Shown in pieces: positions 3,482 through 20,513 of a DNA stretch of 34,734 bases (positions within the stretch are counted from its first letter, which is position 1; every line of letters starts with the position of its first letter). The notes under the pieces are model-generated. The model worked only from the letters and a program-made list of their open reading frames with translations. It did not search any database and had not been told where the DNA came from. The stretch is from a virus. Both the position numbers and the translations under genes were made by a program. The stretch lies in the IMG/VR virus record IMGVR_UViG_3300034407_000852, positions 1-34,734 of that record, one strand, 5' to 3'.

Positions 3482-3496
3482 GCCAAATCATAATCC

Positions 3497-3949
3497 TCAA
3501 GGAACAGCTTTAACACTGATTGATTTAGCGGCATAGATTCGTTCTCTTAATTCAGTTGTAGAGAAACTATGTTCTCTTTTGTTGTAGTATAATTCAATAT
3601 CACGCTGTTCACAAATATCTTTGCCAGTGAAGATAGTATTGCGATACTCTTCTCCTACAATACGGACATCCATCTTCAATGTGAGAAGCAAATCTTCGAG
3701 GTCTTTCTCTGTTTGATAAACAACAATCTCATCGACATACTTTACAGCCTCAAGTTGAATCCAACGCTCTACTAGAGTCTGAATTGGTTTGTTCTTGCTG
3801 TTCGGTCTGTCGATAGTAGGATCAGTTTGCAGTCCACAGATTAGATAGTCACACTTGCTCTTTGCTTCTTTCAGCATAGTGATATGACCCGCATGTAGCA
3901 AATCAAATGTAGAACAAGTAAACCCTATATTAGCTTTCAAATCTTCCAT
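3497..3949 (-). CDS. Cytidylyltransferase-like protein (glycerol-3-phosphate cytidylyltransferase/TagD type)
   Basis: A 150-residue single-domain nucleotidyltransferase. H19-A-G-H22 is the HxGH motif that binds the nucleotide triphosphate. HSFSTTELRERI near residues 127-138 corresponds to the RTxGISTT-type C-terminal motif of the TagD family, and GLQTDPTIDR is typical of the second conserved block. The family normally couples CTP with glycerol-3-phosphate or a similar phospho-alcohol to give a CDP-activated group. Size matches TagD (about 130-150). The start ATG 3949 follows a short gap after the QueC-like gene. The substrate in this phage is unknown; a surface or modified-nucleotide pathway is possible. 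Confidence 0.85.
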   Translation of the reverse strand: MEDLKANIGFTCSTFDLLHAGHITMLKEAKSKCDYLICGLQTDPTIDRPNSKNKPIQTLVERWIQLEAVKYVDEIVVYQTEKDLEDLLLTLKMDVRIVGEEYRNTIFTGKDICEQRDIELYYNKREHSFSTTELRERIYAAKSISVKAVP

Positions 3950-3972
3950 ATTCAGTCTCTCTTATGTTAAAG

Positions 3973-6389: not shown

Positions 6390-6390
6390 A

Positions 6391-8072: not shown

Positions 8073-8077
8073 ACTAT

Positions 8078-8106
8078 ATAATACAATAATAAAAAGGGTT
8101 TGTCAA
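8078..8106 (-). promoter_or_regulatory. Sigma70-like early promoter for primase-thyX-nrd operon
   Basis: On the minus strand TTGACA (8106-8101) is separated by 17 nt from TATTAT (8083-8078). The -35 is perfect, the spacing is ideal and the -10 matches 5 of 6. The predicted start is at about 8071-8072, at the primase ATG itself, so the mRNA may be leaderless. The -35 overlaps the last codons of the upstream coiled-coil gene region. Confidence 0.75.
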
Positions 8107-8588
8107 CCTCCTATCATTTTCATCATAGAAGAAAATGTCACATCATTTCCAACTAAAAATCCGCCGGCTGCAAATGCACCAAGAATTATCCAACGCCACT
8201 TTTCTAGAGCAGTAATTCTTTTATCTAACTTTTCCTGATTCACCACCATATGAGACTTCAAGTCTTTGATAGCTTCAAGAACTTTATCTATTTCATCAGA
8301 CATTTTAGTTTCTATTTCTCTAGTATTCGTGGTTAATCTTGAATGTAGTTCTTTTACTTCATTGTCAAACTTATTTTCGGCAACATTTAGTTCTTGTTTC
8401 ATTTCTTTAAACTCTCGGTCACCCTCAGTCAAACGCTGTTCATGTACTGCTAACATTTGACTTATGCTATTATTTACGTCTGTGATTTTATCTAAGGCAA
8501 CCTCAAGTTTCTCAAATAAATTTCCTATTTGAGAAACGTCATTTTTTACGAGTGCTACCTCTGTTTCTAGGGATTTAACCGTTGCCAT
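8103..8588 (-). CDS. Coiled-coil protein with C-terminal membrane anchor
   Basis: A 161-residue protein. Residues 1 to about 125 are almost entirely charged and helical with heptad-like Leu/Ile/Val spacing, predicted as a long coiled coil. A hydrophobic segment follows (WIILGAFAAGGFLVG), then a short tail. No signal peptide is seen, so it is probably tail-anchored in the inner membrane with the coiled coil in the cytoplasm. It is the last gene of the structural run before the primase promoter and overlaps the upstream gene by 14 nt. Function unknown; an i-spanin-like role is less likely because the orientation is reversed and a better spanin pair exists at 14489-15254. Confidence 0.7.
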   Translation of the reverse strand: MATVKSLETEVALVKNDVSQIGNLFEKLEVALDKITDVNNSISQMLAVHEQRLTEGDREFKEMKQELNVAENKFDNEVKELHSRLTTNTREIETKMSDEIDKVLEAIKDLKSHMVVNQEKLDKRITALEKWRWIILGAFAAGGFLVGNDVTFSSMMKMIGG

Positions 8589-9111
8589 CTTTCTTTTTCT
8601 TCTTCCTACGTATCATTGGCATCATTACAGGATCCCTACCCGGCTCTGCTTGATTCGGCTTACTGGGATTATCAACGCCTAGTCCGGCTATTGCTCCACC
8701 TGCAACTCCCATTTCTTCATTGAAAGATTTAAAAGAAAGTACATTGTGTTCTAGAAGTTTTGCTTGTCTTTGGACTTCCTCAAAGTTCTCAAATAAATCT
8801 AACTGTATTTCAAGATCCTCATCAGTTAAATTATCTAGTTCCTTGTTTTCTCTGAGTATACTCAATGCTGCTGCTACTGTCAAGAGTCTTTTTGCGTTTC
8901 TGTCAGGTGACTTCATCAAAGCACGTTGCAATTTGAATACGAAACGCTGCAGCATAGAATAAGAATCTTTCTCCGTTCCGGTTACTGGATTCTTAATCTT
9001 TTTTCCGTCTTTGTCAACAATACCTAACTTGTATGCTTGACTACCTTCAATAGGAGTAGCGAGCATTCTAAGTATTCGTATTGTGACATATCCGTCTGCT
9101 AATCTTGACAT
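8575..9111 (-). CDS. Conserved phage structural-region protein, unknown function
   Basis: A 178-residue protein starting MSRLADGYVTIRILRMLATP. The first 110 residues look like a folded helical domain, with an acidic stretch (LTDEDLEIQLDLFENFEEVQ). The tail (about 130-178) is Gly/Pro-rich, ending in a Lys/Arg cluster (IRRKKKKKDG). Similar proteins are common in marine T4-like phages beside virion genes, from memory of the family pattern rather than a search. Its ATG shares a base with the previous stop (TAATG). Role unknown; head- or tail-associated is plausible from context. Confidence 0.7.
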   Translation of the reverse strand: MSRLADGYVTIRILRMLATPIEGSQAYKLGIVDKDGKKIKNPVTGTEKDSYSMLQRFVFKLQRALMKSPDRNAKRLLTVAAALSILRENKELDNLTDEDLEIQLDLFENFEEVQRQAKLLEHNVLSFKSFNEEMGVAGGAIAGLGVDNPSKPNQAEPGRDPVMMPMIRRKKKKKDGNG

Positions 9112-9488
9112 TATAGTTTTCTCAATATTTTAATTAAACTTTCGTTTAACGGTATGTCGGTTTCTATTATACCTTTACTCACTATTGTCTGTAAAGGCAT
9201 TCTATGTAAATAAACTAAGTATGTTTTTAAATCAGACCAGTATTCTTCGCCTAACTTATAAAACAACATATGTGTTGCAGCCTCATCAAAAACATTATAT
9301 AGGACTACCAAATGATTCAAAATTAATCGTTCATTTGCCTCGCCTGTTTTTTGATACCGATTTAGAAGTCTCTTTATATATTTTATTCTATTTAGGTCTT
9401 CTTCTAAATCTTTTATTCCTATTGAACCTGGGCTGTAATAATGTTTAACCGCATAGATAAAAAAATTATCTTCATTCAACTCAATCAT
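9111..9488 (-). CDS. DUF7207-like conserved phage protein
   Basis: A 125-residue helical protein beginning MIELNEDNFFIYAVKHYYSPG, with a central ERLILNHLVVLYNVFDEAATHMLFYKL segment. I recognise this block as conserved in a small protein of cyanophage and pelagiphage T4-like genomes (DUF7207-like), usually near structural genes. There are no signal peptide, membrane segments or catalytic motifs. It lies directly downstream of a tail-fibre-like gene and is coupled by TAATG to the next gene. Function unknown. Confidence 0.75.
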   Translation of the reverse strand: MIELNEDNFFIYAVKHYYSPGSIGIKDLEEDLNRIKYIKRLLNRYQKTGEANERLILNHLVVLYNVFDEAATHMLFYKLGEEYWSDLKTYLVYLHRMPLQTIVSKGIIETDIPLNESLIKILRKL

Positions 9489-9499
9489 ATACTAATTTC

Positions 9500-9940
9500 C
9501 TATGAATACGAAGCAGTACCTCCTATCATATACCACTTGCTATTAGTATATATCATAGTTGCTGTCTCACCTGCAGCATCAAATGCAACATTACCTTCTA
9601 CGTTTGATCCTGTGAGTGTTAATGTATGACTGCCAGTGTTACTAGTCATAATAATTAATTTAATTTGCCCATCAGATCCTGCAGCTAGACTCATGTTACC
9701 ACCAGTATCAGGATTATTCAAAAATGTGATATTAGTTGTAACGACAATAGCACCTGACGTTGTTTGCGTATTAGTGTCTTTGATTTGAATCTTGTCAGTA
9801 AACACAGCAGGTGTAGCAATAGTACCAAAAAGGTTTGCTATTGTAATTTTTTTACTGGTAGCTGACTGCACCAAATAGGTAGAATCAGAAGCAGCGGCCG
9901 TTGTGGCCGCCGTTAGTTCTGAGAGTTTCGCATCTGCCAT
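9500..9940 (-). CDS. Tail-fibre-like beta-rich structural protein
   Basis: A 146-residue Ser/Thr/Ala/Gly-rich protein. Its N-terminus, ADAKLSELTAATTAAASDSTYLV followed by KKITIANLF, matches a leader module found on many phage tail-fibre and decoration proteins. The rest alternates polar strands (TSGAIVVTTNITFLNN, SHTLTLTGSNVEG) with an aromatic end, as in a trimeric beta-structured tip. AGGAG lies about 8 nt before the ATG, and a late-type box variant (AATAAATA) sits at 9963-9970. Probably a virion adhesin or decoration protein; which part of the particle carries it is unknown. Confidence 0.7.
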   Translation of the reverse strand: MADAKLSELTAATTAAASDSTYLVQSATSKKITIANLFGTIATPAVFTDKIQIKDTNTQTTSGAIVVTTNITFLNNPDTGGNMSLAAGSDGQIKLIIMTSNTGSHTLTLTGSNVEGNVAFDAAGETATMIYTNSKWYMIGGTASYS

Positions 9941-9962
9941 AAAAATACTCCTAAATTAAAAG

Positions 9963-9970
9963 TATTTATT
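9963..9970 (-). promoter_or_regulatory. Late-type promoter box variant AATAAATA
   Basis: The minus strand reads AATAAATA, one base from the T4 late consensus. Degenerate first positions are tolerated in marine T4-like phages. Initiation at about 9957 would give a short leader with an AGGAG site before the ATG at 9940. It overlaps the stop region of the upstream gene. Confidence 0.45.
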
Positions 9971-10784
9971 AAGAGTCTGGGAACTCAGTATCGTCTGAGG
10001 CATCACCCATATCAGCGATTGCTGTGTCAGTAAGTGCTACTAGAACCTCGTGCTGAAGTTTGCTATTGATGCCATTCACGTTGAAAGTCAATGAAGCACC
10101 TCCACCGCTGCCTAGAGCACCATCAGTTACAGTGATAACGTCATTATCTGCATGACCTGAACCACCTGATATTACGTTTACGTATGCTGCACCACCAGAG
10201 TCAACCTGAATTTCAAAAGTTCCGCCTGTACCTGAACCACCAGTAGAAACACCAGTGTCACCTACAGTAAGAAAGTATTTGCCGCCTTTACGAGAAGCGT
10301 CTGCTGCACTAATAGTGTCAACGGATGAAATACGTCCTGTTGCTGTTTCAGTTCGCTTCACCCAACCTGAGTGAGAAACGCCTTTACCGTCTCCAGTTGC
10401 CGCTGAAACTTCTTCGTCAGCTACACCGAACACAGTAGATGCTAGAATTTGAATAGTGTCAGTAGCAGTATCACCGACACCAGTGATGTCAATCTGTGTG
10501 CCTGCAAGTGCGTCTGAAGCTGAAGCAGCTAACTGATAATCGTGAGCTGTATCAGCAGCCGCATCGCCTGCGATAATGTAATAAGTGGTGCCACTTGCCA
10601 ATCCTACAATAGCAGTTCCTGCTGTAGTATAAACAACCGCATCTCCTGTTGCGAAACCATGTTTAATATTAATGGTATCGTCAGTAGCGTTTACAACATC
10701 AGTGCTAGTGCTATCAATAGTAAAAGTAGTGGCCTCGCTCTGAGGCTTATTAGCCTGAGTATCTGTATTTCCCCATCCAGACAT
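9969..10784 (-). CDS. Virion surface/tail protein with Gly-Ser-rich beta domain
   Basis: A 271-residue acidic protein starting MSGWGNTDTQANKPQ. An early segment (about 20-120) has the repeat-like INIKHGFATGDAVVYTT...GLASGTTYYII pattern, typical of beta-sandwich or fibre modules. Residues about 140-175 contain SGWVKRTETATGRISSVDTI, resembling a conserved region of marine phage structural proteins. A glycine-rich block follows (GGTFEIQVDSGGAAYVNVIS, then GGGASLTFNVNG). AGGAG precedes the ATG and the start is TAATG-coupled to the upstream gene. Likely exposed on the virion; exact role unknown. Confidence 0.7.
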   Translation of the reverse strand: MSGWGNTDTQANKPQSEATTFTIDSTSTDVVNATDDTINIKHGFATGDAVVYTTAGTAIVGLASGTTYYIIAGDAAADTAHDYQLAASASDALAGTQIDITGVGDTATDTIQILASTVFGVADEEVSAATGDGKGVSHSGWVKRTETATGRISSVDTISAADASRKGGKYFLTVGDTGVSTGGSGTGGTFEIQVDSGGAAYVNVISGGSGHADNDVITVTDGALGSGGGASLTFNVNGINSKLQHEVLVALTDTAIADMGDASDDTEFPDS

Positions 10785-11980
10785 TATTGTTCTCCTGAGT
10801 TTTCTGTTTTATTTAAAATTTTTGCGAGAAGTCTATAAGATTCTGCTTTGTCTGTGCCTTCTTTAATCATCTTTCGGAGCCGTTGTATTTCTTCCTCAAC
10901 GTCCTTTTTGAGAGGAGCCATGCCTTTTTGGGCACCTTTCTGCTTCATGTCTCTCTTTGCTCGCTTCTCAGCATCTTTTGCAGCCTGTCCACTTTGTACT
11001 CTGTCTGCTGCTCTTCTAATTATTTGCAGTCTTTCAGGAGTTGCAGCAGGATTTCCGTATTCATCCAACTGTTCCGCCTCTTCCTTAGCAAGTTTCTTAG
11101 CTGCTGTTTGAATGCCTTTGCTTCTCATATATGCTTTCTGATCTTCTTTATCGCCAGGACTGCTAGACATATCAGAAGGATCTGCCTTTGACAACTTATA
11201 AGCTGCCTTAGAAGCAAGATTTACGTTTGACTTTTTCTTAGCAGGATCTGCTGCCTTCTGAATGTAAGAGGAAAGAGTAGATTTATTCAGTTCATCAACT
11301 TGTTCTACTTCTTCTTTCTTCACTGCCTTGTTGATAGCTTTACGTCTTTTCTTGAGGTAAGCATCAGAAGAATCTGAATCACCGTCATTGTCAACGTCAT
11401 CGTCCTCTTGTCCAACGGGATCCATTTTAGTTGCTTCATCAACTACAGCAAAAAATTCAGCCTTTTTATCCTCTGGTAAGTCTCTGATATTAGTGACACC
11501 GTAGTATTCAAGTGCTGCATCAAATCTATCTTTGTAAACTTCATGGAAATTTGCTACTTCCTCATCCATGCCAGCTTTGCTTTTTTCTTTCTTTAGTTCG
11601 GGTGTAAGAAGTCTGTACTTGTCACGCTTACGAATAGAAAGTCTTTTGGCTTTGTTTTCAGCCGTTTTTCTCATGTTTTCTTCTTCTTCAGGACCGTCAA
11701 CAATCCTGACGTTCTCATCAATTTCCACAGTGGATTCCTCCGTCTGATATTTCGACCTTTGTGTGTTTAAAGTTCTTGCACGATTAAAAACAGCTTGGTC
11801 TCCTAATACAAAATTTTGCAATTTGTCTAAATATACAGACATTACATTTCTTTCATCGGGAGTCAATAGAACACCTAGGCGAGACTTACCTATAGCTCGC
11901 ATAAGAACTTGTAGTTTAGCATTAGGTATGATACCTTGTCTAACAAGCTGCTGTAGTCGTTGTTTTTGTGTTTTATTCAT
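10784..11980 (-). CDS. Charged scaffold-like virion protein with dockerin-like calcium loop
   Basis: A 398-residue, highly charged, Ala/Lys/Glu-rich protein. Residues 1-80 form a helical domain (NKTQKQRLQQLVRQGIIPNA). An EF-hand/dockerin-like loop lies at 195-206 (DVDNDGDSDSSD, followed by AYLKKRRKAI). VDELNKSTLSSYIQKA at about 228-243 is a module seen repeatedly in marine phage virion proteins. The C-terminal part is coiled-coil-like. There is no Shine-Dalgarno site; a TATAAATA box sits 5 nt before the ATG. Length and composition would suit a scaffold or an internal head component, but no definite homology to gp22 is visible. Confidence 0.7.
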   Translation of the reverse strand: MNKTQKQRLQQLVRQGIIPNAKLQVLMRAIGKSRLGVLLTPDERNVMSVYLDKLQNFVLGDQAVFNRARTLNTQRSKYQTEESTVEIDENVRIVDGPEEEENMRKTAENKAKRLSIRKRDKYRLLTPELKKEKSKAGMDEEVANFHEVYKDRFDAALEYYGVTNIRDLPEDKKAEFFAVVDEATKMDPVGQEDDDVDNDGDSDSSDAYLKKRRKAINKAVKKEEVEQVDELNKSTLSSYIQKAADPAKKKSNVNLASKAAYKLSKADPSDMSSSPGDKEDQKAYMRSKGIQTAAKKLAKEEAEQLDEYGNPAATPERLQIIRRAADRVQSGQAAKDAEKRAKRDMKQKGAQKGMAPLKKDVEEEIQRLRKMIKEGTDKAESYRLLAKILNKTENSGEQ

Positions 11981-11985
11981 ACTGG

Positions 11986-11993
11986 TATTTATA
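11986..11993 (-). promoter_or_regulatory. T4 late-type promoter box TATAAATA abutting ATG
   Basis: The minus strand reads TATAAATACCAGTATG: an exact late box followed by only 5 nt and then the ATG of the scaffold-like gene. T4 late transcription normally starts about 6 nt after the box, which falls on the A of the ATG at 11980. The same geometry recurs at 19785-19792. Confidence 0.8.
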
Positions 11994-12009
11994 ACCTGTA
12001 TGACTTAGA

Positions 12010-13020
12010 CTACTTTTTAATTTTAAACTTTTTCGCTACTTGTTTTTTGGCTACTGGACGTGCTGCTTTGTACTTCTTAGACTTCTTGGCGGCTGATCCT
12101 TTCCTGTTTTTCATGCGTTGTATTTCCATTTTACGCATATTAGGAAGTAATCTAACTGAAAGTCTTTGTACTAGAGGGGTGTATAGCTGCAACATTTTTT
12201 CTAAACGTGCTTTTTCAGCAGGTGGCATATTAGTTTTGCTTCTGCCTCTTAGTAGACGTTTATAAACTAATCCTCTTGCACCTCTTGTTGCACGTTTCTT
12301 CAAACGGTCAGGTGTAGAGCCTCTTCTCAGTGCAATGTTTCTAGCTACTTTTAACTTTTGTCTGTTCTTTCTTGCTGCGAATCTACGCTTGAGTCTGCCT
12401 TGTACTGACAGTACCTCAGTAATTTGCACTTCGTCATGTGGATCGTCTGAATCAATGTCATCTATTAGTTCATCTTCATCATACAATTCAAGGTCAATTG
12501 CCATTTGCCAATTGAACACATCTATATCGTGTTCTAATGCTCTGACGTCTTTATCATTCAGAGGAACTATACCTGCCTCAGGGGCATTGATTTCATTGTC
12601 TTTTCTGTATTCTGCTTTTGTTTCTCCTGCCTCACCTTCTTCATAAATTTTATCTTTGTGCTTATCCTTTCGACTGTAATCATTCTTACGGTCTCTGTGA
12701 GTAGCAGGCTTATTAAATTTATTCATGTTTTTGGCTACAGGATCTTTCTTACTCATTTCCTTAGCCTCCTTTATTTTCTTTTTCTCGCCGGGAGTTTTAC
12801 TTTTCATGTACTGAGTACCTTTGTCAGTACCCCATTCATGTCCGCCCATAGAAGAATCATACTTTATTTCTTCATGGTGCATATTTAGCAAGTAATGTGC
12901 TAAATTCTTTTTACCTTTACTAGATTTTTTACTGGAACGTATGGCTTCCAATTCTGCTTTAGTAGCATCTTTTGGAATACCGTGTCTGTTTATTTCAGTA
13001 AACTCTATAAAGGTTTTCAT
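12010..13020 (-). CDS. Basic virion-associated protein of marine T4-like phages
   Basis: A 336-residue protein in three parts. The N-terminus MKTFIEFTEINRHG resembles the capsid-targeting leader of T4 internal proteins but lacks the ideal cleavage residues. The Lys-rich middle (about 30-130) carries an acidic patch (LYDEDELIDDIDSDDPHDE, about residues 180-198). The very basic C-terminal domain (from VLSVQGRLKRRFAARKNRQK to the end, ending in KKFKIKK) is a block I recognise from cyanophage-type genomes. The basic domain should bind nucleic acid. Stop and start abut directly with the preceding gene (TAA then ATG). Could be an internal head protein; unproven. Confidence 0.7.
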   Translation of the reverse strand: MKTFIEFTEINRHGIPKDATKAELEAIRSSKKSSKGKKNLAHYLLNMHHEEIKYDSSMGGHEWGTDKGTQYMKSKTPGEKKKIKEAKEMSKKDPVAKNMNKFNKPATHRDRKNDYSRKDKHKDKIYEEGEAGETKAEYRKDNEINAPEAGIVPLNDKDVRALEHDIDVFNWQMAIDLELYDEDELIDDIDSDDPHDEVQITEVLSVQGRLKRRFAARKNRQKLKVARNIALRRGSTPDRLKKRATRGARGLVYKRLLRGRSKTNMPPAEKARLEKMLQLYTPLVQRLSVRLLPNMRKMEIQRMKNRKGSAAKKSKKYKAARPVAKKQVAKKFKIKK

Positions 13021-14499
13021 TTAATCGCCACGCTTAGCGCCTAAGTATGCAGCTACTGCCATCTTTCTGCGTTTTGCCTTTGAGGCTCCTCTAAACTGAG
13101 GTGCGTCTGACTTGTAAAAATCGTTTATATATTTTTTGATTCCCATTGAAGGATTAAGTTTCTCCAACAAAGGACAACCTGTCATATCAAAATCGTCATC
13201 CCAATAATCTTTTTCTCTTTGTCTTTCTTGGTGTCTTTCAATAGCCTTGCGTCTTTTTGCTGCTTCTGAGTCATAAGCAGCTGGACCATGTACACTGGCT
13301 TTCACTTTTTTAGCAGAAGGTTGAGCGTGTCTTTGTGCAGCTGTCATGTGCTTCATGCCTATGTTCAGCTGCGGCATGGTTCTCCCTGGTTTGGTAGCCT
13401 TTTTAGCACTCTGTTCTTTTTCTTTATCTCTTTTTTGTACTTGTCTTTGATAACTACTATATTTACCGCCATCACGGGAATCTTTTTCCTCAGCAGTAAG
13501 TTTACGTGCATCAATATTTCTTACATAACTAGCAACATCATGTGCGTGACTTTGTTTTGTCTTACTAGGATCTTTTTTCATCCTTTTTTCAAGTTCTTTT
13601 GCAGCATATGCGTAGTTTCTTTTGTGCAATGTTTTGGACTTCATTATCTTGTCAACAAGACCTTCATCCATTTTCATTCTTTCTAATACTTTTTTCTTTA
13701 CTTCGGGTGACAAGTCCTTAAAGTGATACAGGTTTTCACTATCTTTAGTGTGAGTTTTTCCTGTCATAACCTGACCATCATGGGCGTGTTGGTCACCTGT
13801 ATATTCTGTGCCGTCTTTTTTATAGTGTCCGTCTGTTCTCCAAGAATGATTTTCACCCTCTGACATTCTCTTCTTGAGTTCTGCTCTGTCCTTTTTGAGT
13901 GAGTCTAATTTTTCAGACTGAGACTTCTTGTTCCAATCTCTTTTTATTCTGTCAGACTGTGCCTTTGCAATCATAACACCGAGATCAGTTTCTTTGACAC
14001 AATTAGGAACAACTTTGTCGCCTTTCTTTTTCATACCAGCCTGTTTGTATCCGTCCCAACACTTTTCGTTGACAGTTTCTTCTTTTACAGTTCTCCAACC
14101 ACCGCCACGTTTCTTGTACCAACGTACTGCCCAACCATTTGCGTATGCTGAAGGATAAACGTCAAACTTAGCACGTGCTGCTGCCTTAGCACGTGACCAT
14201 AATGCTGGATTAGTAGGCTTTGACTTTTCTGTAATGTATTCCACTTCTTCTTTTTTTGTTTTTACCATGATAGGTTTACCGCCTTTCCCAGGTCTGTCTG
14301 CTACTGGGTCTTGTCTACGTTTTCTTCTAGCTGCTGATGCTCTGTCTTTTTTCGACATAGCTTGAGCCTTAGAACGTGGCAAACACTTAGGCTTACCTTC
14401 GCCAGGTTCTCTTGCACAAGGTCCTTTTATTTCGCCTTTAGTGTCCATGCGAACCCAATCGCCTTTAGAACCTTTGCCAAACCAATCTTTAAGACTCAT
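13021..14499 (-). CDS. Modular basic protein (DUF6321-like, DUF5872-like and C-terminal SDAPQF module)
   Basis: A 492-residue, strongly basic mosaic. Residues 1-75 (MSLKDWFGKGSKGDWVRMDT, then CAREPGEGKPKC) match a DUF6321-like block. Residues about 93-137 (KPTNPALWSRAKAAARAKFD, then YPSAYANGWAVRWYKKRGGG) match DUF5872. CWDGYKQAGMKKKG near 147-160 is a repeated phage mini-module. A long Lys/Arg/His middle follows, and the end (about 445-492) is the KSDAPQFRGASKAKRRKMAV module. Each of these parts turns up in different combinations in marine phage proteins. The start overlaps the lipoprotein gene by 11 nt. Likely virion-associated and DNA-binding; no enzyme motif found. Confidence 0.75.
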   Translation of the reverse strand: MSLKDWFGKGSKGDWVRMDTKGEIKGPCAREPGEGKPKCLPRSKAQAMSKKDRASAARRKRRQDPVADRPGKGGKPIMVKTKKEEVEYITEKSKPTNPALWSRAKAAARAKFDVYPSAYANGWAVRWYKKRGGGWRTVKEETVNEKCWDGYKQAGMKKKGDKVVPNCVKETDLGVMIAKAQSDRIKRDWNKKSQSEKLDSLKKDRAELKKRMSEGENHSWRTDGHYKKDGTEYTGDQHAHDGQVMTGKTHTKDSENLYHFKDLSPEVKKKVLERMKMDEGLVDKIMKSKTLHKRNYAYAAKELEKRMKKDPSKTKQSHAHDVASYVRNIDARKLTAEEKDSRDGGKYSSYQRQVQKRDKEKEQSAKKATKPGRTMPQLNIGMKHMTAAQRHAQPSAKKVKASVHGPAAYDSEAAKRRKAIERHQERQREKDYWDDDFDMTGCPLLEKLNPSMGIKKYINDFYKSDAPQFRGASKAKRRKMAVAAYLGAKRGD

Positions 14500-14890
14500 C
14501 TTCTTCCTCTGGTTGTACGTTTACATTTTCCTCATAATAAACAATAACAGCAGTTTGTGATTCAATAAATCTTCTCAGTTCACCCATGTTCAGTGATATG
14601 TTTTCATAATCAGGAACACTGATTGCAAAGAAAACAATATCACCATTCTCTTCCTCAAACCTTTCTAAAAACTCATCTATGTTCTCACCCGTTACCGCAT
14701 AAAACTCAATGTCATATAATGTGACGGGTTTAGGTCTTGCTTGTATTGGTATCTCTCTGTAAAGATACTCTGTTTCTGTAACTACAATAGGCTCTGGTTG
14801 TACAGGTTGCCTACCTCCGAATAAACCTAAACCTGTGCAACTACTCAGTAGTGGTAGGAGCAGGCTTACCAGTAATAATTTCCATTTCAT
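14489..14890 (-). CDS. Outer-membrane lipoprotein, o-spanin candidate (Rz1-like)
   Basis: A 133-residue protein with a lipoprotein signal peptide: a basic start (MKWK), a leucine-rich core and the lipobox LLSSC with the modified Cys at about residue 18. It is followed by a Pro-rich stretch (QPVQPEPIV) typical of o-spanins, and the end is acidic. ATG 14890 is chosen over a TTG at 14893. It overlaps the coiled-coil membrane gene (14841-15254) by about 50 nt in another frame, the classic Rz/Rz1 layout. With its partner it would fuse inner and outer membranes in the last lysis step. It is longer than lambda Rz1. Confidence 0.72.
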   Translation of the reverse strand: MKWKLLLVSLLLPLLSSCTGLGLFGGRQPVQPEPIVVTETEYLYREIPIQARPKPVTLYDIEFYAVTGENIDEFLERFEEENGDIVFFAISVPDYENISLNMGELRRFIESQTAVIVYYEENVNVQPEEEDES

Positions 14891-15254
14891 CAAATAATCT
14901 CGCTGTAGCGTTATTTACTCTAGTTTCAATCAAACCTGGTCTTTGTGCTGTCAATACTGTTAGGTTATGATTCCTTAATTTTGAAGCCAAGTCATCTGAG
15001 TATGATTCTGCTTCTTGTAATTGTTCCCTTAGCGTATTGTTTGCTAGTTCAAACTGTTGTGCATCTCTCTGTTGTCTTTCTATTGTTTCATTGCTAGTAG
15101 CAATGGCTTGTTCAAGTTGTGCTTGATTTGCTCTCAACGTAGCAATGTTTTGATTTAACTGTTCTATGTGTGCCTGTGTGTCATAATAATACCAACGACC
15201 CACCAAACCCATTACAACTATAATCAATAAAAGTACAAAGGCAATTTTTCCCAT
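14841..15254 (-). CDS. Inner-membrane coiled-coil protein, i-spanin candidate (Rz-like)
   Basis: A 137-residue protein with a single N-terminal membrane helix (IAFVLLLIIVVMGLVG) followed by a periplasmic coiled coil of about 80 residues (HIEQLNQNIATLRANQAQLE and onward). This type II topology is that of lambda Rz. ATG 15254 (MGKIAF) is preferred because it shares a base with the preceding stop (TAATG); an upstream GTG is possible. The 3' end contains the start of the lipoprotein gene in another frame. With the lysozyme and the holin candidate it would complete a three-step lysis set. Confidence 0.75.
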   Translation of the reverse strand: MGKIAFVLLLIIVVMGLVGRWYYYDTQAHIEQLNQNIATLRANQAQLEQAIATSNETIERQQRDAQQFELANNTLREQLQEAESYSDDLASKLRNHNLTVLTAQRPGLIETRVNNATARLFDEMEIITGKPAPTTTE

Positions 15255-15541
15255 TAGCAGTTCCACCTTCTACGTGCTGCCTTACCTCTTTCACCTGTCC
15301 AACCACGTGACCTTGCACAGAAGGACTTACGCCTTTTAGCTGCTTTGCTGTCAGGGTCAAGTTTACTAGGAGGAGTAGTCACAGCAGTTTGTAATTTACT
15401 GCCAGGATTCTGTCTGCGGTATTTCTCAACACCTTTCTTTGTCAGGCCTGCACCCTTATCAGTAGGACGCTTATGGCCTCCGCCTTGAGTCATACCTTCC
15501 ATGCCCTTGGCTTCTTCTAAAAACTCTTTAAATGTTTTCAT
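15254..15541 (-). CDS. DUF6321-like basic protein with capsid-targeting-like leader
   Basis: A 95-residue protein starting MKTFKEFLEEAKGMEG. The first 11 residues closely resemble the capsid-targeting sequence of T4 internal proteins (IPII/IPIII, MKTYQEFIAEA). They contain LEE-A, fitting the gp21 prohead protease rule (L/I)-x-E before A/G/S. The remainder (GAGLTKKGVEKYRRQNPGSK, then KAAKRRKSFCARSRGWTG) is a DUF6321-like basic block with cysteines near the end. ATG 15541 overlaps the previous stop (ATGA). I infer packaging inside the head and ejection with DNA; the mature protein would be small and basic. Confidence 0.75.
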   Translation of the reverse strand: MKTFKEFLEEAKGMEGMTQGGGHKRPTDKGAGLTKKGVEKYRRQNPGSKLQTAVTTPPSKLDPDSKAAKRRKSFCARSRGWTGERGKAARRRWNC

Positions 15542-15816
15542 GTCAGTGATGCCACTCGTAGTGCCTCCCAATCTGGTTCTGCAGGTAGTTCCTCATAGTC
15601 AGAATTAGCAGACCAAGCACCTTCGCTGTAAGTATACTTGTTACCTGTCCAATCTTCAGGAGGAGTAACTCCTGTAACCATAGTGCAATTACTGCTGTTC
15701 ATGTCTGCAATAACAGAATCAGGAGTTGCTGTACTATCGCTGCCTATTGTGACAGAAGCATCGTCCTCAAATATATATTTGGAAATGTTAGTAGTATTTT
15801 CTATAATTGTTTTCAT
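15538..15816 (-). CDS. Small acidic beta-rich phage protein
   Basis: A 92-residue protein beginning MKTIIENTTNISKYIFEDDASV. It contains ADMNSSNCTMVTGVTPPEDW and a YTYSEGAW segment. The pattern (an N-terminal strand pair, then a D-x-N-S-x-N turn, then PPxDW) recurs in small proteins beside fibre and lysis genes of marine T4-like phages. Start 15816 is chosen over 15831 because ATGA overlaps the previous stop and a purine-rich GGAAGAGAAAG run precedes it. Likely structural (a fibre chaperone or decoration protein is possible); function unproven. Confidence 0.7.
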   Translation of the reverse strand: MKTIIENTTNISKYIFEDDASVTIGSDSTATPDSVIADMNSSNCTMVTGVTPPEDWTGNKYTYSEGAWSANSDYEELPAEPDWEALRVASLT

Positions 15817-16136
15817 TTCTTTCTCTTCCAATTCATTTGGTCAAGTTGTTTTTTTAGTTTCGCTATCTCTTCCATAATTTCTGTTGTACCACCGGGAGCA
15901 ACAGGAGGATGAGACCACTCTTCTAATTTTTCTATTCTATTTGCCAAACCAGGATATTGAGATGCCCATTTAGCTTCTTTCTTTGCTATATTTATATCAT
16001 ATTTAACGGCAAGATACTCCATAAAGCGATCTAGTTTCGTTTGAAACCATCTACCCATGCGGGTAGAAAGGAACCACTTACCAAAAGCGGAACCAAAAAT
16101 ACCAGTTAAGGCAGCCCTAAGTAGTATCCAATACAC
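15813..16136 (-). CDS. Small protein with N-terminal membrane helix
   Basis: A 107-residue protein. The first 25 residues (MYWILLRAALTGIFGSAFGK) are hydrophobic and may form one membrane or amphipathic helix. A basic/aromatic patch (STRMGRWFQTKLDRFMEYLA) and a helical charged region ending in KRKK follow. It is coupled by TAATG to the DUF1353 gene upstream and by ATGA to the gene downstream. Position in the lysis/structure block would suit a holin accessory or membrane-associated assembly factor, but it lacks the paired membrane helices of ordinary holins. Confidence 0.65.
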   Translation of the reverse strand: MYWILLRAALTGIFGSAFGKWFLSTRMGRWFQTKLDRFMEYLAVKYDINIAKKEAKWASQYPGLANRIEKLEEWSHPPVAPGGTTEIMEEIAKLKKQLDQMNWKRKK

Positions 16137-16606
16137 TACATTTCCTCTCTAGGAACAATAGAGCTATGACCGAACCAACAAACAGCTTTCCATGCACACC
16201 ACTTTTTCCATCCTGCTACGTGTTCTGCGGAAACTTCCATTGCCTCTTTAAATACTTTGTCTGCTGCTACTTTTGCATCTACAACAAGACACATATCTGC
16301 TTTGTCACCCTGGGCGGCTCTGTACTGACGAATACACCAATACAAATAATCGTGTACTACACCTGCACGTGCTACGTCAAAGGGTGCAATGAACCACCAA
16401 ATACCTCTGGGAACAGATGCTAAGTCTGTTTTGAAACCTTTAGGTACAGTGATTTTCATTTTTGTGTTTACTTTAGCACCGACCGCCTTTAGTGTTTTTG
16501 CTTCTGTTTCATTAAGAACATCAGAATCAAATGCCAGTGACAGATCAAGTATCCAAGTGCAAGGAGGCTGAAAATCTGCATCGAGCAATCTATTAAATTT
16601 TGCCAT
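16136..16606 (-). CDS. DUF1353 family phage protein
   Basis: A 156-residue protein with the DUF1353 core: VPKGFKTDLASVPRGIWWFI, then a VVHDYLY motif (the His-Asp pair), then AADKVFKEAM and a terminal FG element. The family is widespread in tailed phages and often lies beside lysis genes; its biochemical role is not established to my knowledge, though the conserved D/H residues suggest a hydrolase-like or metal site. GGAG precedes the start. It shares TAATG with the next gene. Confidence 0.88.
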   Translation of the reverse strand: MAKFNRLLDADFQPPCTWILDLSLAFDSDVLNETEAKTLKAVGAKVNTKMKITVPKGFKTDLASVPRGIWWFIAPFDVARAGVVHDYLYWCIRQYRAAQGDKADMCLVVDAKVAADKVFKEAMEVSAEHVAGWKKWCAWKAVCWFGHSSIVPREEM

Positions 16607-16608
16607 TG

Positions 16609-16818
16609 TTAATCTCCAAAATATTTGTTAAGCATTTCTAGTTTGTCATCATATTCAGCCATTTGTGATAATTCACCTTCAATAGCTTCCATAATATCAG
16701 AGTGTTCTCCTATACCCGCAGGATTTTTTAAGTACACTTCAACATTTACACGATGTTTTTCAATGTTTCCTTCAAAATGTTTTCTACTTGCATCCAATAT
16801 TTGGTCTCGTAATTTCAT
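16609..16818 (-). CDS. Small conserved helical phage protein
   Basis: A 69-residue protein, MKLRDQILDASRKHFEGNIE followed by NVEVYLKNPAGIGEHSDIM and a helical acidic end (EYDDKLEMLNKYF). I recognise this sequence type from many marine T4-like phages, where it is a short protein of unknown function near DUF1353 or structural genes. AGGAG precedes the ATG. It has no cysteines, signal or membrane segments. Amphipathic helices suggest a binding adaptor. Confidence 0.75.
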   Translation of the reverse strand: MKLRDQILDASRKHFEGNIEKHRVNVEVYLKNPAGIGEHSDIMEAIEGELSQMAEYDDKLEMLNKYFGD

Positions 16819-16826
16819 AGCATCTC

Positions 16827-17552
16827 CTATCTAAGCAAGGGGACAAGATACTTTCCAGTAGTGTCCCATTTTCCATAAATCAATCTTCTTGGTTTGTCGT
16901 GGTGATTTTTGTGATAATTTTCCCCACCAATCAATATATTAGAAATCAATCCTAGGTTAGCGGGAGTTCCTTTCAATCCCCCGTGACCTCTCCAATTTAT
17001 ATGTAACATTTGCAACCAACTCCAAGAAAACATAAATGATAACCAAACTATAGACCACATATTTATTGATGCTAGTATAATTAAATTTAAAAAATATAGT
17101 TTCCAATAATGATTTGTAACAAATTGTGCATCTTTTTGTTTTGCATAGTATTTAAGAAAAGTTACTCTAGGTTTTACTTCATCATACTCACCCCAAAACA
17201 ATCTCCAAAATCCTATTTGTTTAGGACCGTGAGGATCTCCTTCCTTGTCAGTATTGGCATGATGTTGTAAATGTGATACAACATAATGTCCAGGAGGAGC
17301 TTCTGCTGTAATTACCATAAACCATAACATTAACTTTCTACCTAACCAACTAGGTTCAAACTGTTGATGTGTCAACCATCTATGATATCCTATGTTAGCT
17401 ACTCTGGTTACAAATCTACAAAGTATAAACCAAAACAAAACTTCCCATATCGTGGGTTGTTCAATTAAAAACCAAAGAGGTAGGCCTATAATTGTCATTG
17501 TAAAAAGTAAAATTATTTTTACTTTTGTTTTATCTGTATAAGACAATTTCAC
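16827..17552 (-). CDS. Fatty-acid desaturase, stearoyl-CoA desaturase-like (copy 1)
   Basis: A 241-residue integral membrane di-iron enzyme that would introduce a double bond into acyl chains. All three histidine boxes are present: HRWLTH, HLQHHANTD and NYHKNHH. Hydrophobic segments flank them (LLFTMTIIGLPLWFLI; LNLIILASINMWSIVWLSFM). The family normally needs ferredoxin or a cytochrome b5-like donor from the host. The start is a GTG at 17552 overlapping the lysozyme stop (GTGA), so it is tied to the lysis/late block. It is a different subtype from the desaturase at 31748-32464. Could remodel membrane fluidity late in infection. Confidence 0.9.
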   Translation of the reverse strand: MKLSYTDKTKVKIILLFTMTIIGLPLWFLIEQPTIWEVLFWFILCRFVTRVANIGYHRWLTHQQFEPSWLGRKLMLWFMVITAEAPPGHYVVSHLQHHANTDKEGDPHGPKQIGFWRLFWGEYDEVKPRVTFLKYYAKQKDAQFVTNHYWKLYFLNLIILASINMWSIVWLSFMFSWSWLQMLHINWRGHGGLKGTPANLGLISNILIGGENYHKNHHDKPRRLIYGKWDTTGKYLVPLLR

Positions 17553-18010
17553 CTTTCTAAACTCGCTAAATGTTCTAATCTAACCATTAATCTTTCAGCT
17601 CTGTTGGTCACTTGTCTATACCAACGGCTGTCCCGTCCTTCTTTTGCTGCTTCCAACCAATCACCACTTTCAACAGCAGCATTAAACTTTTTAAAACCAG
17701 AGAGTCGAGGACGCCCCATATTAAACATCATATTAACCAGGATCTCCTGTACTTCACCCGGCAACTTTCCAAAGTCCCCTTCTCCGTATAAATTATGACA
17801 TTCGCTAACTGCTGTGTCAAGATCCTTACTGAAACATTCTTTGACTCTTTCTTCAGAGACTGTTGTTCCAACTTCTTGTCCGTGTTCGGCATCCGCTTCG
17901 GTAACAAGGTGACCGACTCCGAATGTTGGATACCCGAGGTGGTCTTTGTATATTTCATACTCTACCCCCTCGTCTATTTTAAGTTGTTCGTATATCGCTT
18001 CTCTGTTCAT
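17549..18010 (-). CDS. e: Lysozyme/endolysin, T4 gp e-like (GH24)
   Basis: A 153-residue muramidase. The catalytic triad spacing of T4 lysozyme (E-x8-D-x5-T) is seen as E14, D23 and T29 in IDEGVEYEIYKDHLGYPTFG. The rest follows the family (VNMMFNMGRPRLSGFKKF, then RYRQV-type end). There is no signal peptide or SAR helix, so export to the periplasm needs a holin. It overlaps the preceding nucleotidyltransferase gene by 32 nt and the desaturase by GTGA. Open frames on either strand within it are shadows. Confidence 0.95.
   Translation of the reverse strand: MNREAIYEQLKIDEGVEYEIYKDHLGYPTFGVGHLVTEADAEHGQEVGTTVSEERVKECFSKDLDTAVSECHNLYGEGDFGKLPGEVQEILVNMMFNMGRPRLSGFKKFNAAVESGDWLEAAKEGRDSRWYRQVTNRAERLMVRLEHLASLER
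17793..17821 (-). promoter_or_regulatory. Possible sigma70-like promoter inside lysozyme gene
   Basis: TTGACA (17821-17816), 17 nt, then CATAAT (17798-17793) on the minus strand. The score is good but it is entirely inside coding sequence and 240 nt from the next start (desaturase). It may be a chance match. Confidence 0.3.
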
Positions 18011-18614
18011 TCAAAAATGCTCCAAAAGATAATCTTGTTTGATCCTCATTCAACCCCATGCCGTTCCTAACAGCATGAAAAAGTTTCTTAGCGTGATCGT
18101 GTGAATGATCTGGATGTAACCCTGCCTTAAAACTTTCTAAGTCATTATTGCCTGCGTGTGATCGCATCTTAGTACCACTGATGCCTGCTACACCCTCAGC
18201 ATCTGGATCTCTTGCACCCGCTGACTTTATATGTATTTTGTCAAAATGATATTCACCATCAGGACCATTGTATTTATTTGCTAAATTTTTAAAATCTTCT
18301 ACTCTATCTGAACCAACTACCATAGTAACTTTCTTGTATCCTTCCTGATGTATTTTTTTCAAGTGTGCAAGAAAGTGAGGTGATTCTTTACTAGAATGTT
18401 CTATATTTGTTTTAGGGTGTACGTGCTTTAGGTAGTCTACTTTGTGGTGTGGGTGCAATGGATTTTTATGTTTGTCTTGAGAATGACTTACTACCACACG
18501 ATGGTCTGCACCAACTTCTTTTGCATGGTTGTGTACAGTATCTATGAGTTTACTGTGTCCTGCAGTAGGAGGATTCATCCTACCAAATGTAAATACCATG
18601 TGTTTATCAGCCAC
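17979..18614 (-). CDS. HxGH-family nucleotidyltransferase-like protein (NMNAT/cytidylyltransferase fold)
   Basis: A protein of about 211 residues. FTFGRMNPPTAGHSKLID at residues 8-25 carries the nucleotide-binding (T/H)xGH motif (T17-A-G-H20). GISGTKMRSH further on corresponds to the ISSTxxR motif that closes over the nucleotide. Similar proteins are common in marine T4-like phages, with no known substrate. I prefer a GTG start at 18614: it has GAGG 7 nt upstream and overlaps the DUF6267 stop by 8 nt (GTGGCTGA); ATGs at 18629 and 18599 are alternatives. The C-terminus ends SFGAFLNEQRS, vaguely like a packaging motif. Overlaps lysozyme by 32 nt. Confidence 0.8.
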   Translation of the reverse strand: MADKHMVFTFGRMNPPTAGHSKLIDTVHNHAKEVGADHRVVVSHSQDKHKNPLHPHHKVDYLKHVHPKTNIEHSSKESPHFLAHLKKIHQEGYKKVTMVVGSDRVEDFKNLANKYNGPDGEYHFDKIHIKSAGARDPDAEGVAGISGTKMRSHAGNNDLESFKAGLHPDHSHDHAKKLFHAVRNGMGLNEDQTRLSFGAFLNEQRSDIRTT

Positions 18615-19779
18615 TTTGTTTCCTCGCATCTCCTGCTGCAAAGTTCATTCTGCTAAATTCGTGTCTCAGTACAAACTTAGATGGTCTGTTGTTGTGATAA
18701 ACTACATAACCTTCAGGAGATGTAGGTGCACCATCAACTTCATGTCCCATACTGTGGTGACCGTCCATCGCAGTAGTCAAAACATTTTTAGCATTTTGCA
18801 AATGTTTGTGTACTTCTAGTGCTGCATTTACGTGTCCATCGTCTACACTAGCAACCATACGTTTACCTGCATTTATTTGTGCTTCTTGTCCAGCAGCAGT
18901 TTTTCTCTTAGTTGCTTCTTTTGCATGATGATCTGTAATGTGTTTTTTAAGTCCTTCTGCTGAAGGAGCTGAGTTGTCTCTCACTGCTCGGTTAATATGC
19001 ACTTTGAGTTTTTCTGCGTGTTTTTGTGTGTGTTCATAGGCGCCATTAGGAGCTTTCTTGTAAGCACCCATAGCCTTTTTTATATGAGAAGTGTACTCGT
19101 CCTGCATAGCTTTTGTATAAGGAACGTGTTGTGTTTCGTGGTGAATCGGAAACTGGTGAACATCATCATGGTGTTCTAATTCAGGTATGTGACCCTGCTT
19201 GACTGTCATGTCAGACCACTTTTTTCCTTCGTACGCTGTATGTATTGCTACACCTATTTTAGAGTTTACTGCCTTTTTTGCGTGTTCAGAATTTGCAGGA
19301 TGATGATATGTGATAAGCTGTGTTTTATGTGAAACCCTATGTCCTTCGTGTTTTACATCATCAGGCGTGTGCATAATGTCTGCTTGATATACACCTTTAC
19401 CATCATGTACTTTAGGCAAGTGTTCTAAAGCTGTTTTTAGTTTAGTTACTAGACCGGGTGCGTGACCGTGATTTTTTTCTATATCTTTCGGCGTGTAGTT
19501 TATTTTAGGCTTTTTGTTAAATACGGACTTTGAACCGACAAAAAACTTACCTGTCTCTGGGTGTGTACCAAAAACTATTGAAGGTGACCCATCATATTTT
19601 GTTGTTATTTTTGTAGAGTTATCTCTACCGGAAAGGTGTTCGTGTACACCGTTAAGCGTGTGATAAGCATGAGCAAAACCCTCAGCACCTCCATGTATGA
19701 CATGGTCTTCAACGTGTTCTAGGTGCTTTAGTTTATCTTCTGATTTTGCTTCTACAATGAATTTTCGTAAACTAAGCAT
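18607..19779 (-). CDS. DUF6267-like protein; putative capsid-packaged ligase-type nucleotidyltransferase
   Basis: A 390-residue, very His/Lys-rich protein. The N-terminus MLSLRKFIVEAKSED resembles the T4 internal-protein packaging leader, with IVE-A as a gp21-type cleavage site. After it come motifs in the order seen in DNA/RNA ligases and capping enzymes: K61-Y-D-G64 (motif I, with K61 the candidate for covalent AMP), FFVGSKS at 79-85, GVYQADIM at 129-136 (motif III position), EGYVV at 356-360 (motif IV) and SKFVLR at 367-372 (motif V, K368). A long helical, His-rich insert (about 190-340) separates III from IV. A late promoter abuts the ATG. I recognise the family as DUF6267; the ligase assignment is my inference. 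Confidence 0.72.
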   Translation of the reverse strand: MLSLRKFIVEAKSEDKLKHLEHVEDHVIHGGAEGFAHAYHTLNGVHEHLSGRDNSTKITTKYDGSPSIVFGTHPETGKFFVGSKSVFNKKPKINYTPKDIEKNHGHAPGLVTKLKTALEHLPKVHDGKGVYQADIMHTPDDVKHEGHRVSHKTQLITYHHPANSEHAKKAVNSKIGVAIHTAYEGKKWSDMTVKQGHIPELEHHDDVHQFPIHHETQHVPYTKAMQDEYTSHIKKAMGAYKKAPNGAYEHTQKHAEKLKVHINRAVRDNSAPSAEGLKKHITDHHAKEATKRKTAAGQEAQINAGKRMVASVDDGHVNAALEVHKHLQNAKNVLTTAMDGHHSMGHEVDGAPTSPEGYVVYHNNRPSKFVLRHEFSRMNFAAGDARKQSG

Positions 19780-19784
19780 ACTTG

Positions 19785-19792
19785 TATTTATA
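19785..19792 (-). promoter_or_regulatory. T4 late-type promoter box TATAAATA abutting ATG
   Basis: The minus strand reads TATAAATACAAGTATG: an exact late box, 5 nt, then the start codon of the DUF6267-like gene. Geometry and flank (C, C/A, A, G, T) are the same as at 11986-11993. Predicted initiation is at the A of the ATG (19779). Confidence 0.8.
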
Positions 19793-20513
19793 ACATTCTA
19801 GTATAGGAGAAATTTATTTTTTCTTTTACTGTTCCAACTAAATCAACTTCTTTAGGAGAAGGTCTAGGTAGTCTAATTAACATTTCTTCATCATCGTAAG
19901 TTATCAGGTCAACCGATTTATCTACCACTGCTTTTCTTCCGCCTCTAACAACAGTGATTCCCAAACTAGTAGATAATTTAGATGAGATTGTAACATCTTC
20001 TAATCTTTTGTGAAATTCACGATCGCCTTTATGATATCCTGTAAATGATTCATCGTATCCTCCAGCTTCCCAATATTTTTCTTTACTAACTAGAAAAACA
20101 TTTTTATGACCGGGATAACGATAATATTTTTTATTGGCGGTGTTCATCATCGCAAATCTATATAACCTTTCTTTTCTAAACTTTATGGTCTTTAAGAATC
20201 CTATGCTATCCGGGGACATTAAACAATCAATATCTAAATATAAAACAAAATCAGTAGACGCAAGTTTCGTTATCAGATTTCTACAACCATGACCATTGAA
20301 ACCCAAATCTTCATCTACTTGCCAGAGTTGAAAGTTAGGTATATCTAAATCTTTGAGTATGTCGTATGCGGGATATTTTTGCGAACCATCATCTACTAAG
20401 ATGATTTCTACCTCAGGTGGGTATCTAAGCCAAAACTCTAATTGATTTTTTAAAAGTTCTGGCTCATTGTAATATGTAAAACCAACTGTAAACCTATATT
20501 CCTTGGAGTCCAT
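19788..20513 (-). CDS. Family 2 (GT-A) glycosyltransferase
   Basis: A 241-residue protein with GT2 hallmarks: an N-terminal strand (VGFTYYNEPELLKNQLEFWL), the nucleotide-binding VDDGS at 40-44 and the metal-binding LDIDC at 93-97. A GGYDESFTGYHKGDREFHKR segment follows, which corresponds to the acceptor/catalytic region. It would transfer a sugar from an NDP-sugar to a glycan, a protein or modified DNA. No membrane helix. The 3' end carries the late promoter of the next gene, and the start overlaps the previous gene by 20 nt. Acceptor unknown; the dehydrogenase at 27139-27873 could supply an NDP-sugar acid, but linkage is speculative. Confidence 0.88.
   Translation of the reverse strand: MDSKEYRFTVGFTYYNEPELLKNQLEFWLRYPPEVEIILVDDGSQKYPAYDILKDLDIPNFQLWQVDEDLGFNGHGCRNLITKLASTDFVLYLDIDCLMSPDSIGFLKTIKFRKERLYRFAMMNTANKKYYRYPGHKNVFLVSKEKYWEAGGYDESFTGYHKGDREFHKRLEDVTISSKLSTSLGITVVRGGRKAVVDKSVDLITYDDEEMLIRLPRPSPKEVDLVGTVKEKINFSYTRML

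What the first reader, a model, noticed from the sequence alone, without database searches (positions are those of the whole stretch)
18607..19779. DUF6267-like protein looks like a covalent nucleotidyltransferase packaged in the virion
Seen: the start MLSLRKFIVEAKSED resembles the T4 internal-protein leader (MKTYQEFIAEA) with IVE-A fitting the gp21 cleavage rule. Downstream, KYDG (K61), GVYQADIM, EGYVV (356-360) and SKFV (K368) appear in the order of ligase/capping-enzyme motifs I, III, IV and V. Known: T4 internal proteins with such leaders are packed in the head, cut by gp21 and injected. Inference: a ligase- or capping-like enzyme delivered with phage DNA. The His-rich helical insert between motifs III and IV is unusual for ligases.
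Basis: partly seen in the sequence, partly recalled or inferred. Interest (0 to 1): 0.8.

Follow-up and report, generated by a model that had tools for sequence, protein, structure and literature searches.

The report
Ligase-like phage enzyme tagged for packaging
A protein of unknown function carried by nearly all T4-like marine viruses of bacteria looks like a remote cousin of the enzymes that seal DNA and RNA, and in this virus it carries a short address tag like the one that sends proteins into the virus head for delivery with the DNA.

Summary
The ORF is real: 390 aa, on the minus strand (18607-19779), DUF6267 (PF19782, E 8e-88). AlphaFold models are confident (pLDDT 92 and 94). For a natural relative with a shorter insert, the best 17 PDB matches are all DNA/RNA ligases or capping enzymes, though none passes E 0.001. 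Profile comparison with ligases is not significant. I conclude a very divergent covalent-nucleotidyltransferase fold; activity is untested.

The leader matches the T4 capsid-targeting sequence (positions 4, 7, 8, 10) and is a detachable module. A T4-type late-promoter motif (TATAAATA) ends 5 nt before the start codon. In cyanophage S-CREM2, 4 of 5 leader-bearing genes are in its virion proteome, including a relative of this protein's genomic partner. DUF6267 itself has not been found in a virion; the three proteomes checked carry leaderless versions.

Most DUF6267 phages examined lack any recognised ligase.

The parts
18607..19779 (-). DUF6267 protein, 390 aa, predicted divergent covalent nucleotidyltransferase (ligase/capping-like fold)
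19750..19779 (-). residues 1-10 MLSLRKFIVE: capsid-targeting-like leader, candidate prohead-protease cut after E10
   Evidence: column pattern; T4 leader; residues 1-13 disordered in the model; residue roles from PMC9026906
19785..19792 (-). TATAAATA, T4-type late-promoter motif ending 5 nt before the ATG
   Evidence: motif described in PMC2984593
19588..19599 (-). K61-Y-D-G64, motif I, predicted nucleotidyl-accepting lysine
   Evidence: K, D and G 96/96; end of strand 57-61
19528..19530 (-). K84, possible motif Ia equivalent (after strand 79-82)
   Evidence: 96/96; falls on the SR of DNA ligase motif Ia in the alignment
19372..19395 (-). GVYQADIM (129-136), motif III-like; D134 in the place of the usual Glu
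   Evidence: D134 96/96; aligned to DGE of DNA ligases
18763..19113 (-). helical insert, residues 223-339, with invariant N263 and K331
   Evidence: shorter in cyanophage relatives
18700..18714 (-). EGYVV (356-360), motif IV-like
   Evidence: E356 and G357 in 95/95 ungapped rows; strand 357-362; aligned to Rnl2 motif IV
18676..18678 (-). K368, motif V-like
   Evidence: 95/95 ungapped rows; strand 365-369
17979..18614 (-). partner gene: HIGH-motif (TAGH...ISGTKMR) nucleotidyltransferase, 211 aa from a likely GTG start overlapping the end of the DUF6267 gene; no leader

Best explanation
DUF6267 is a very divergent branch of the covalent-nucleotidyltransferase fold (DNA ligase, RNA ligase, capping enzyme). 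It is expected to bind a nucleotide, transfer NMP to K61 and pass it to an acceptor, most likely a nucleic-acid 5' end. It works with a HIGH-motif nucleotidyltransferase encoded next to it or fused to it, and in some phages with a polynucleotide-kinase-like protein, as an end-healing and sealing (repair) cassette. In the lineage of this window the protein is expressed late from a T4-type promoter, carries a capsid-targeting leader, enters the prohead, is cut after E10 and is injected with the DNA. Shown here: motif invariance, fold class by structure comparison (coherent, not individually significant), gene linkage, leader and late-promoter motif. Inferred: catalysis, substrate, cleavage, packaging of this very protein, and the repair role.
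For: Motif residues invariant in order I, III, IV, V, each at or next to a predicted strand. Foldseek of the short-insert relative: ranks 1-17 all ligases/capping enzymes from many distinct families: fungal tRNA ligase, archaeal DNA ligases, DNA ligases I, III and IV, RNA editing ligase, guanylyltransferase. Partner adjacent, downstream or fused in 158 of 163 loci with enough flank; fusions confirmed. Kinase in 36 loci, sometimes fused to the partner. Leader. Late-promoter motif upstream of 59 of 117 leader-bearing versus 3 of 76 leaderless genes, still p about 0.03-0.05 on clusters. Virion proteomes: leader-bearing partner homologues detected in S-CREM2, S-SZBM1 and S-SCSM1; 4 of 5 leader genes of S-CREM2 in its 52-protein list, p about 0.01. 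Most DUF6267 phages examined have no recognised ligase.
Against: No PDB match below E 0.001. Profile comparison with RNA and DNA ligases is not significant, while the two ligase families find each other easily (probability 94). Motif III has Asp, not Glu. No OB-fold or motif VI follows motif V. The HIGH partner could equally mean NAD metabolism. DUF6267 was not detected in the three proteomes checked (leaderless versions). Several phages have both DUF6267 and a DNA ligase, so it is not simply a replacement.
Confidence: 0.5

Rival explanations
1. NAD-metabolism module: the HIGH partner is an NMN adenylyltransferase (NadR-like when fused to the kinase), and DUF6267 is an NAD- or nucleotide-using transferase of that pathway, for instance one that consumes NAD and releases NMN which the partner recycles, acting on a small molecule or protein rather than nucleic-acid ends.
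For: Weak best matches of the partner are NMN/NaMN adenylyltransferases. Cyanophage homologues are annotated NMNAT and found in virions. HIGH-kinase fusions resemble the NMNAT-kinase fusions described in jumbo phages (PMC7824862).
Against: All NMNAT matches are far below curated cut-offs. The kinase is closer to zeta-toxin and polynucleotide-kinase families. The ligase-like fold of DUF6267 is unexplained by NAD salvage alone.
Confidence: 0.25
2. It is the unrecognised replicative or repair ligase of T4-like marine phages, made for replication; in some lineages it is also packaged, but packaging is secondary.
For: Present in about 470 phage records, often just after UvsX, gp41 and MazG. The literature states that cyanomyoviruses lack a g30 homologue and leaves distant homologues open (PMC2984593). 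No PF01068, PF01653 or PF09414 match in most complete DUF6267 phages tested.
Against: Some phages carry DUF6267 and a DNA ligase together. Late-promoter motif and leader do not fit a purely replicative role. No OB domain for nick binding.
Confidence: 0.15
3. A nucleotidyltransferase fold that has lost catalysis and serves as a DNA-binding internal protein or as a carrier that brings its partner into the head.
For: Leader sits on DUF6267 or on the partner but rarely on both (75 and 49 versus 8 unique pairs), as if one tag could serve the pair; His- and Lys-rich insert.
Against: Catalytic-motif residues are invariant, unlike in a degenerate enzyme. The one-tag pattern weakens when related sequences are clustered (25 of 36 clusters).
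Confidence: 0.06
4. Motif resemblance by chance in an unrelated fold.
For: No individually significant structural or profile match.
Against: Four motifs in order at strands, all invariant; the top structural matches are coherent across many independent ligase and capping families.
Confidence: 0.04

Closest known systems
Covalent nucleotidyltransferase superfamily (T4 Rnl2, ATP- and NAD-dependent DNA ligases, fungal tRNA ligase Trl1, mRNA capping enzymes)
   Same: KxDG motif I, motif III-, IV- and V-like elements in order at predicted strands; structure search points only here
   Different: Not detectable by profile comparison; Asp in motif III; 115-residue helical insert with invariant N263 and K331 before motif IV; no OB or other C-terminal domain; HIGH domain fused or encoded alongside
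T4 internal proteins IPI-III and their capsid-targeting sequence
   Same: Short N-terminal leader with hydrophobic 4, aromatic 7, aliphatic 8 and Glu 10; late-promoter motif
   Different: Body is a 370-residue enzyme-like fold, not a small basic protein; Leu at position 4; virion presence unproven
NadR-type NMN adenylyltransferase/kinase and phage NMNAT
   Same: HIGH nucleotidyltransferase partner; HIGH-kinase fusions in relatives
   Different: Partner scores far below NMNAT cut-offs; DUF6267 has no counterpart in NAD salvage
T4 Pnkp plus Rnl1 or Rnl2 RNA repair
   Same: Ligase-like plus polynucleotide-kinase-like proteins in one cluster
   Different: Kinase present in only part of the loci and not in this window; additional HIGH nucleotidyltransferase with no counterpart in T4 repair

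Membership tests
Covalent nucleotidyltransferase superfamily | Motif I lysine (KxDG) conserved | tested here: met
   K61, D63, G64 96/96; 58/58 in the second alignment
Covalent nucleotidyltransferase superfamily | Motifs III, IV and V in order with conserved acidic and Lys residues | tested here: met
   D134 96/96 (Asp, usually Glu), E356 and K368 in all ungapped rows; strands at each
Covalent nucleotidyltransferase superfamily | Nucleotidyltransferase core fold | tested here: inconclusive
   Ranks 1-17 all of this superfamily, but best E 0.05 and TM-score 0.25; 390-aa model gives only scattered ligase hits
Covalent nucleotidyltransferase superfamily | Detectable profile homology to RNA_ligase or DNA_ligase families | tested here: not met
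   hhalign probability at most 1.2; P 0.05-0.26. Best alignments do fall on the catalytic motifs. Not required for superfamily membership, but bars naming it an Rnl2 or DNA ligase
Covalent nucleotidyltransferase superfamily | Covalent lysyl-NMP intermediate | not testable with these tools
   Needs biochemistry
DNA ligase / mRNA capping enzyme | OB-fold domain with motif VI after motif V | tested here: not met
   The chain ends with one helix (372-389) after motif V
T4 internal protein / capsid-targeting sequence | Leader with targeting residues 4 and 7 and processing residues 8 and 10 | tested here: met
   L4, F7, I8, E10; family columns F/L/Y4, F/Y/H7, L/I8, E10; rule from PMC9026906
T4 internal protein / capsid-targeting sequence | Late transcription | tested here: inconclusive
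   TATAAATA at 19785-19792 before the gene and enriched before leader-bearing relatives; no transcript data
T4 internal protein / capsid-targeting sequence | Present in the virion and cut by the prohead protease | not testable with these tools
   Only leaderless DUF6267 relatives have proteome data, and they were not detected; other leader-bearing proteins were
HIGH-motif nucleotidyltransferase (partner) | (H/T)xGH and ISxTxxR motifs | tested here: met
   TAGH and ISGTKMR in the window partner; (T/H)xGH in 234 of 244 relatives, the second motif only in 84 with the strict pattern; Pfam CTP_transf_like E 9e-7
NMN adenylyltransferase (partner) | Score above curated NMNAT cut-off | tested here: not met
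   17.9 bits versus cut-off 112

The most novel reading that the evidence does not exclude
DUF6267 founds a new family of covalent nucleotidyltransferases and is the long-missing ligase of T4-like marine phages, working with a HIGH nucleotidyltransferase and often a kinase; in many lineages it is packed into the head and acts on host or phage nucleic acids from the first moment of infection.
Probability: 0.2. Interest if true: 0.85.

Novelty: new variant of a known kind. Interest (0 to 1): 0.62.

Why it matters
DUF6267 occurs in about 470 phage records, mostly marine T4-like cyanophages, yet no paper in the library searched names it. T4-like cyanophages are stated to lack a DNA ligase, with distant homologues left open. 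A nearly universal, catalytically intact ligase-like protein beside the replication genes is a direct candidate, testable with one adenylylation assay. The capsid-targeting rule, if right, also gives a sequence-only way to predict which enzymes marine phages carry into the cell; in one phage it recovered four virion-associated proteins that are not parts of the particle's known architecture.

Tried and rejected
Plain sequence search of PDB with the protein and two profiles: nothing relevant. Foldseek with the full 390-aa window model: only scattered ligase hits, because the helical insert dominates; solved by modelling a natural short-insert relative. hhalign to ligase families: not significant. 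DUF6267 in literature: no paper. The idea that exactly one of the pair carries the leader was striking on raw counts (124 of 147) but drops to 25 of 36 clusters against about 20 expected, so it is reported only as suggestive. Late-promoter motifs before leader-bearing partner genes: not enriched. A clean replacement of DNA ligase by DUF6267 is contradicted by phages that have both. PF09511 (T4 Rnl1 type) was searched, but the control also stayed silent, so that absence is not informative.

Full report
What is there. The ORF lies on the minus strand, 19779 down to 18607, 390 aa; the plus-strand reading has 15 stops. Pfam names it DUF6267 (E 7.7e-88) and PHROGs phrog_455, unknown function. The window is a 34.7-kb virus record of a T4-like phage: DNA polymerase, UvsX, DnaB-like helicase, clamp loader, primase and ribonucleotide reductase genes flank the region. 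Relatives are found in 469 annotated phage records, most of them cyanophages, all below 60% identity, and in many marine and freshwater viral contigs.

Conservation. In 96 aligned sequences down to 21% identity, K61, D63, G64, K84, D134, Y158, H180, N263 and K331 are invariant; E356, G357, V359 and K368 are invariant in all ungapped rows. An independent set weighted to cyanophages agrees (58 of 58). This is the behaviour of an active site, and the order is that of motifs I, III, IV and V. Two departures from canonical ligases: motif III carries Asp in place of Glu, and two invariant residues (N263, K331) lie inside the helical insert.

Fold. AlphaFold gives mean pLDDT 92.3; only residues 1-13, the leader, are below 50. 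K61 ends a strand, D134 lies in a strand, and motifs IV and V lie on neighbouring strands. Against PDB the 390-aa model finds nothing below E 0.001, but several weak hits are DNA or RNA ligases. Because the helical insert dominates that model, I modelled a natural relative with a shorter insert (301 aa, pLDDT 93.8). Its ranks 1-17 in PDB are all of the covalent-nucleotidyltransferase superfamily: fungal tRNA ligase (E 0.05), archaeal DNA ligases, human DNA ligases I, III and IV, trypanosome RNA editing ligase and a guanylyltransferase; NAD-dependent LigA, Rnl2 and Naegleria RNA ligase follow below. No single match is significant (best E 0.05, TM-score 0.25). The case rests on coherence across many independent families. 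Profile comparison is not significant either (probability at most 1.2), while the RNA and DNA ligase profiles find each other at 94. The best local alignment to DNA ligases nevertheless puts K61 on the motif I lysine, K84 on motif Ia and D134 on the motif III acid; the best to Rnl2 puts E356-G357 on motif IV. My reading: same fold and probably same chemistry, but a remote branch. No OB domain follows motif V, so it is not a DNA ligase or capping enzyme in the strict sense.

Partner genes. Directly downstream, probably from a GTG at 18614 that overlaps the end of the DUF6267 gene, lies a HIGH-motif nucleotidyltransferase (TAGH, ISGTKMR; Pfam CTP_transf_like). Among DUF6267 loci with enough flank, 158 of 163 have this partner adjacent, downstream within 6 kb, or fused at the C terminus; fusions were confirmed by Pfam in seven proteins, one of them S-PM2. 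In 36 loci there is also a P-loop kinase related to zeta toxin and polynucleotide kinase, sometimes fused to the HIGH domain in either order. Such a cassette (ligase-like, kinase, HIGH transferase) suggests end healing and sealing; the alternative is an NAD module, since the partner's weak best matches are NMN adenylyltransferases, though far below cut-off.

Leader. In T4 the first ten residues of IPIII suffice for packaging; residues 4 and 7 carry targeting, 8 and 10 processing (PMC9026906). T4 carries MKTYQEFI twice. DUF6267 columns match: F/L/Y at 4, mostly F/Y at 7, mostly L/I at 8, E at 10. The leader is a module: many cyanophage DUF6267 proteins lack it and start MPNKHLEHL or MAKNTHLEHL, while their partner carries it (MKKFSAFLTEAE). 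In this window DUF6267 has it and the partner does not. Raw counts (75 leader on DUF6267 only, 49 on partner only, 8 both, 15 neither) suggest one tag per pair, but clustering weakens this.

Late promoter. TATAAATA lies at 19785-19792, ending 5 nt before the ATG. NATAAATA is the cyanophage and T4 late-promoter motif (PMC2984593). It occurs within 60 nt upstream of 59 of 117 leader-bearing DUF6267 genes, 34 of them at the same position as here, against 3 of 76 leaderless ones and 1.9% of random stretches. Collapsed to clusters the association stays at p about 0.03-0.05. The motif alone is common in the AT-rich window (14 found, 11 expected), so position and conservation carry the argument. Late expression fits packaging.

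Virion data. Published proteomes list the leader-bearing partner homologue in S-CREM2 (gp154), S-SZBM1 (_140) and S-SCSM1 (_91). In S-CREM2 four of the five annotated leader-bearing genes are among the 52 detected proteins of 221 (p 0.012): a SAM hydrolase, gp13, an APH/ChoK-like kinase and the cytidylyltransferase. In S-SZBM1 it is one of three, in S-SCSM1 one of two. The DUF6267 proteins of these three phages were not detected, and at least that of S-SZBM1 has no leader. So the leader predicts virion presence in this phage family, but DUF6267 itself in a virion remains to be shown.

Missing ligase. T4-like cyanophages are said to lack gene 30 DNA ligase, with distant homologues left open (PMC2984593). 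Ten named phages with DUF6267 were searched: nine have no PF01068 and all ten no PF01653 match, and PF09414 was absent from the six of them tested. Others have DUF6267 and a DNA ligase together (DLP6, L032, L110, L120 and L145 records). DUF6267 is thus a candidate for the missing ligase, not an established one.

Verdict. Observation confirmed; interpretation partly supported; a new variant of a known kind, with the activity and the virion location as the two decisive open points.

Noticed in passing
window 15254-15541 (-): A second capsid-targeting-like leader (MKTFKEFLEEAKGMEG) on a 95-aa DUF6321 protein; candidate packaged protein.
   Followed up: no
window 17979-18614 (-): HIGH-motif nucleotidyltransferase partner, likely GTG start overlapping the DUF6267 stop region; homologues are in virion proteomes of three cyanophages.
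   Followed up: yes
window 16827-17552 (-): Fatty acid desaturase gene (Pfam E 1.4e-10) beside a phage lysozyme; possible auxiliary metabolic gene, no PHROG match.
   Followed up: no
L285 (S-CREM2 1-20000), genes gp6, gp12-gp14: SAM hydrolase, gp13 and APH/ChoK-like kinase carry T4-like packaging leaders and are in the virion list; a gene annotated CRISPR-Cas9 nuclease next to them is also in the virion list but no leader was found on it.
   Followed up: partly
L164 5216-7954, L111 1795-3687, L185 6182-7462, L149 5221-6441: Kinase and HIGH-nucleotidyltransferase domains fused in either order, and an adenylate-kinase plus zeta-type kinase fusion, downstream of DUF6267.
   Followed up: partly
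NC_019443 (metaG-MbCM1) and similar records: DUF6267 or partner proteins annotated as NrdB ribonucleotide reductase, which looks like a mis-annotation.
   Followed up: no
L131, L134, L135, L137, L164, L168: DUF6267 with a degenerate leader (MFSFKGFxTxDKN): targeting residues 4 and 7 kept, processing Glu10 lost.
   Followed up: no
L081 (HTVC008M) 5383-7170: Partner protein fused to DUF5824 at the C terminus.
   Followed up: no
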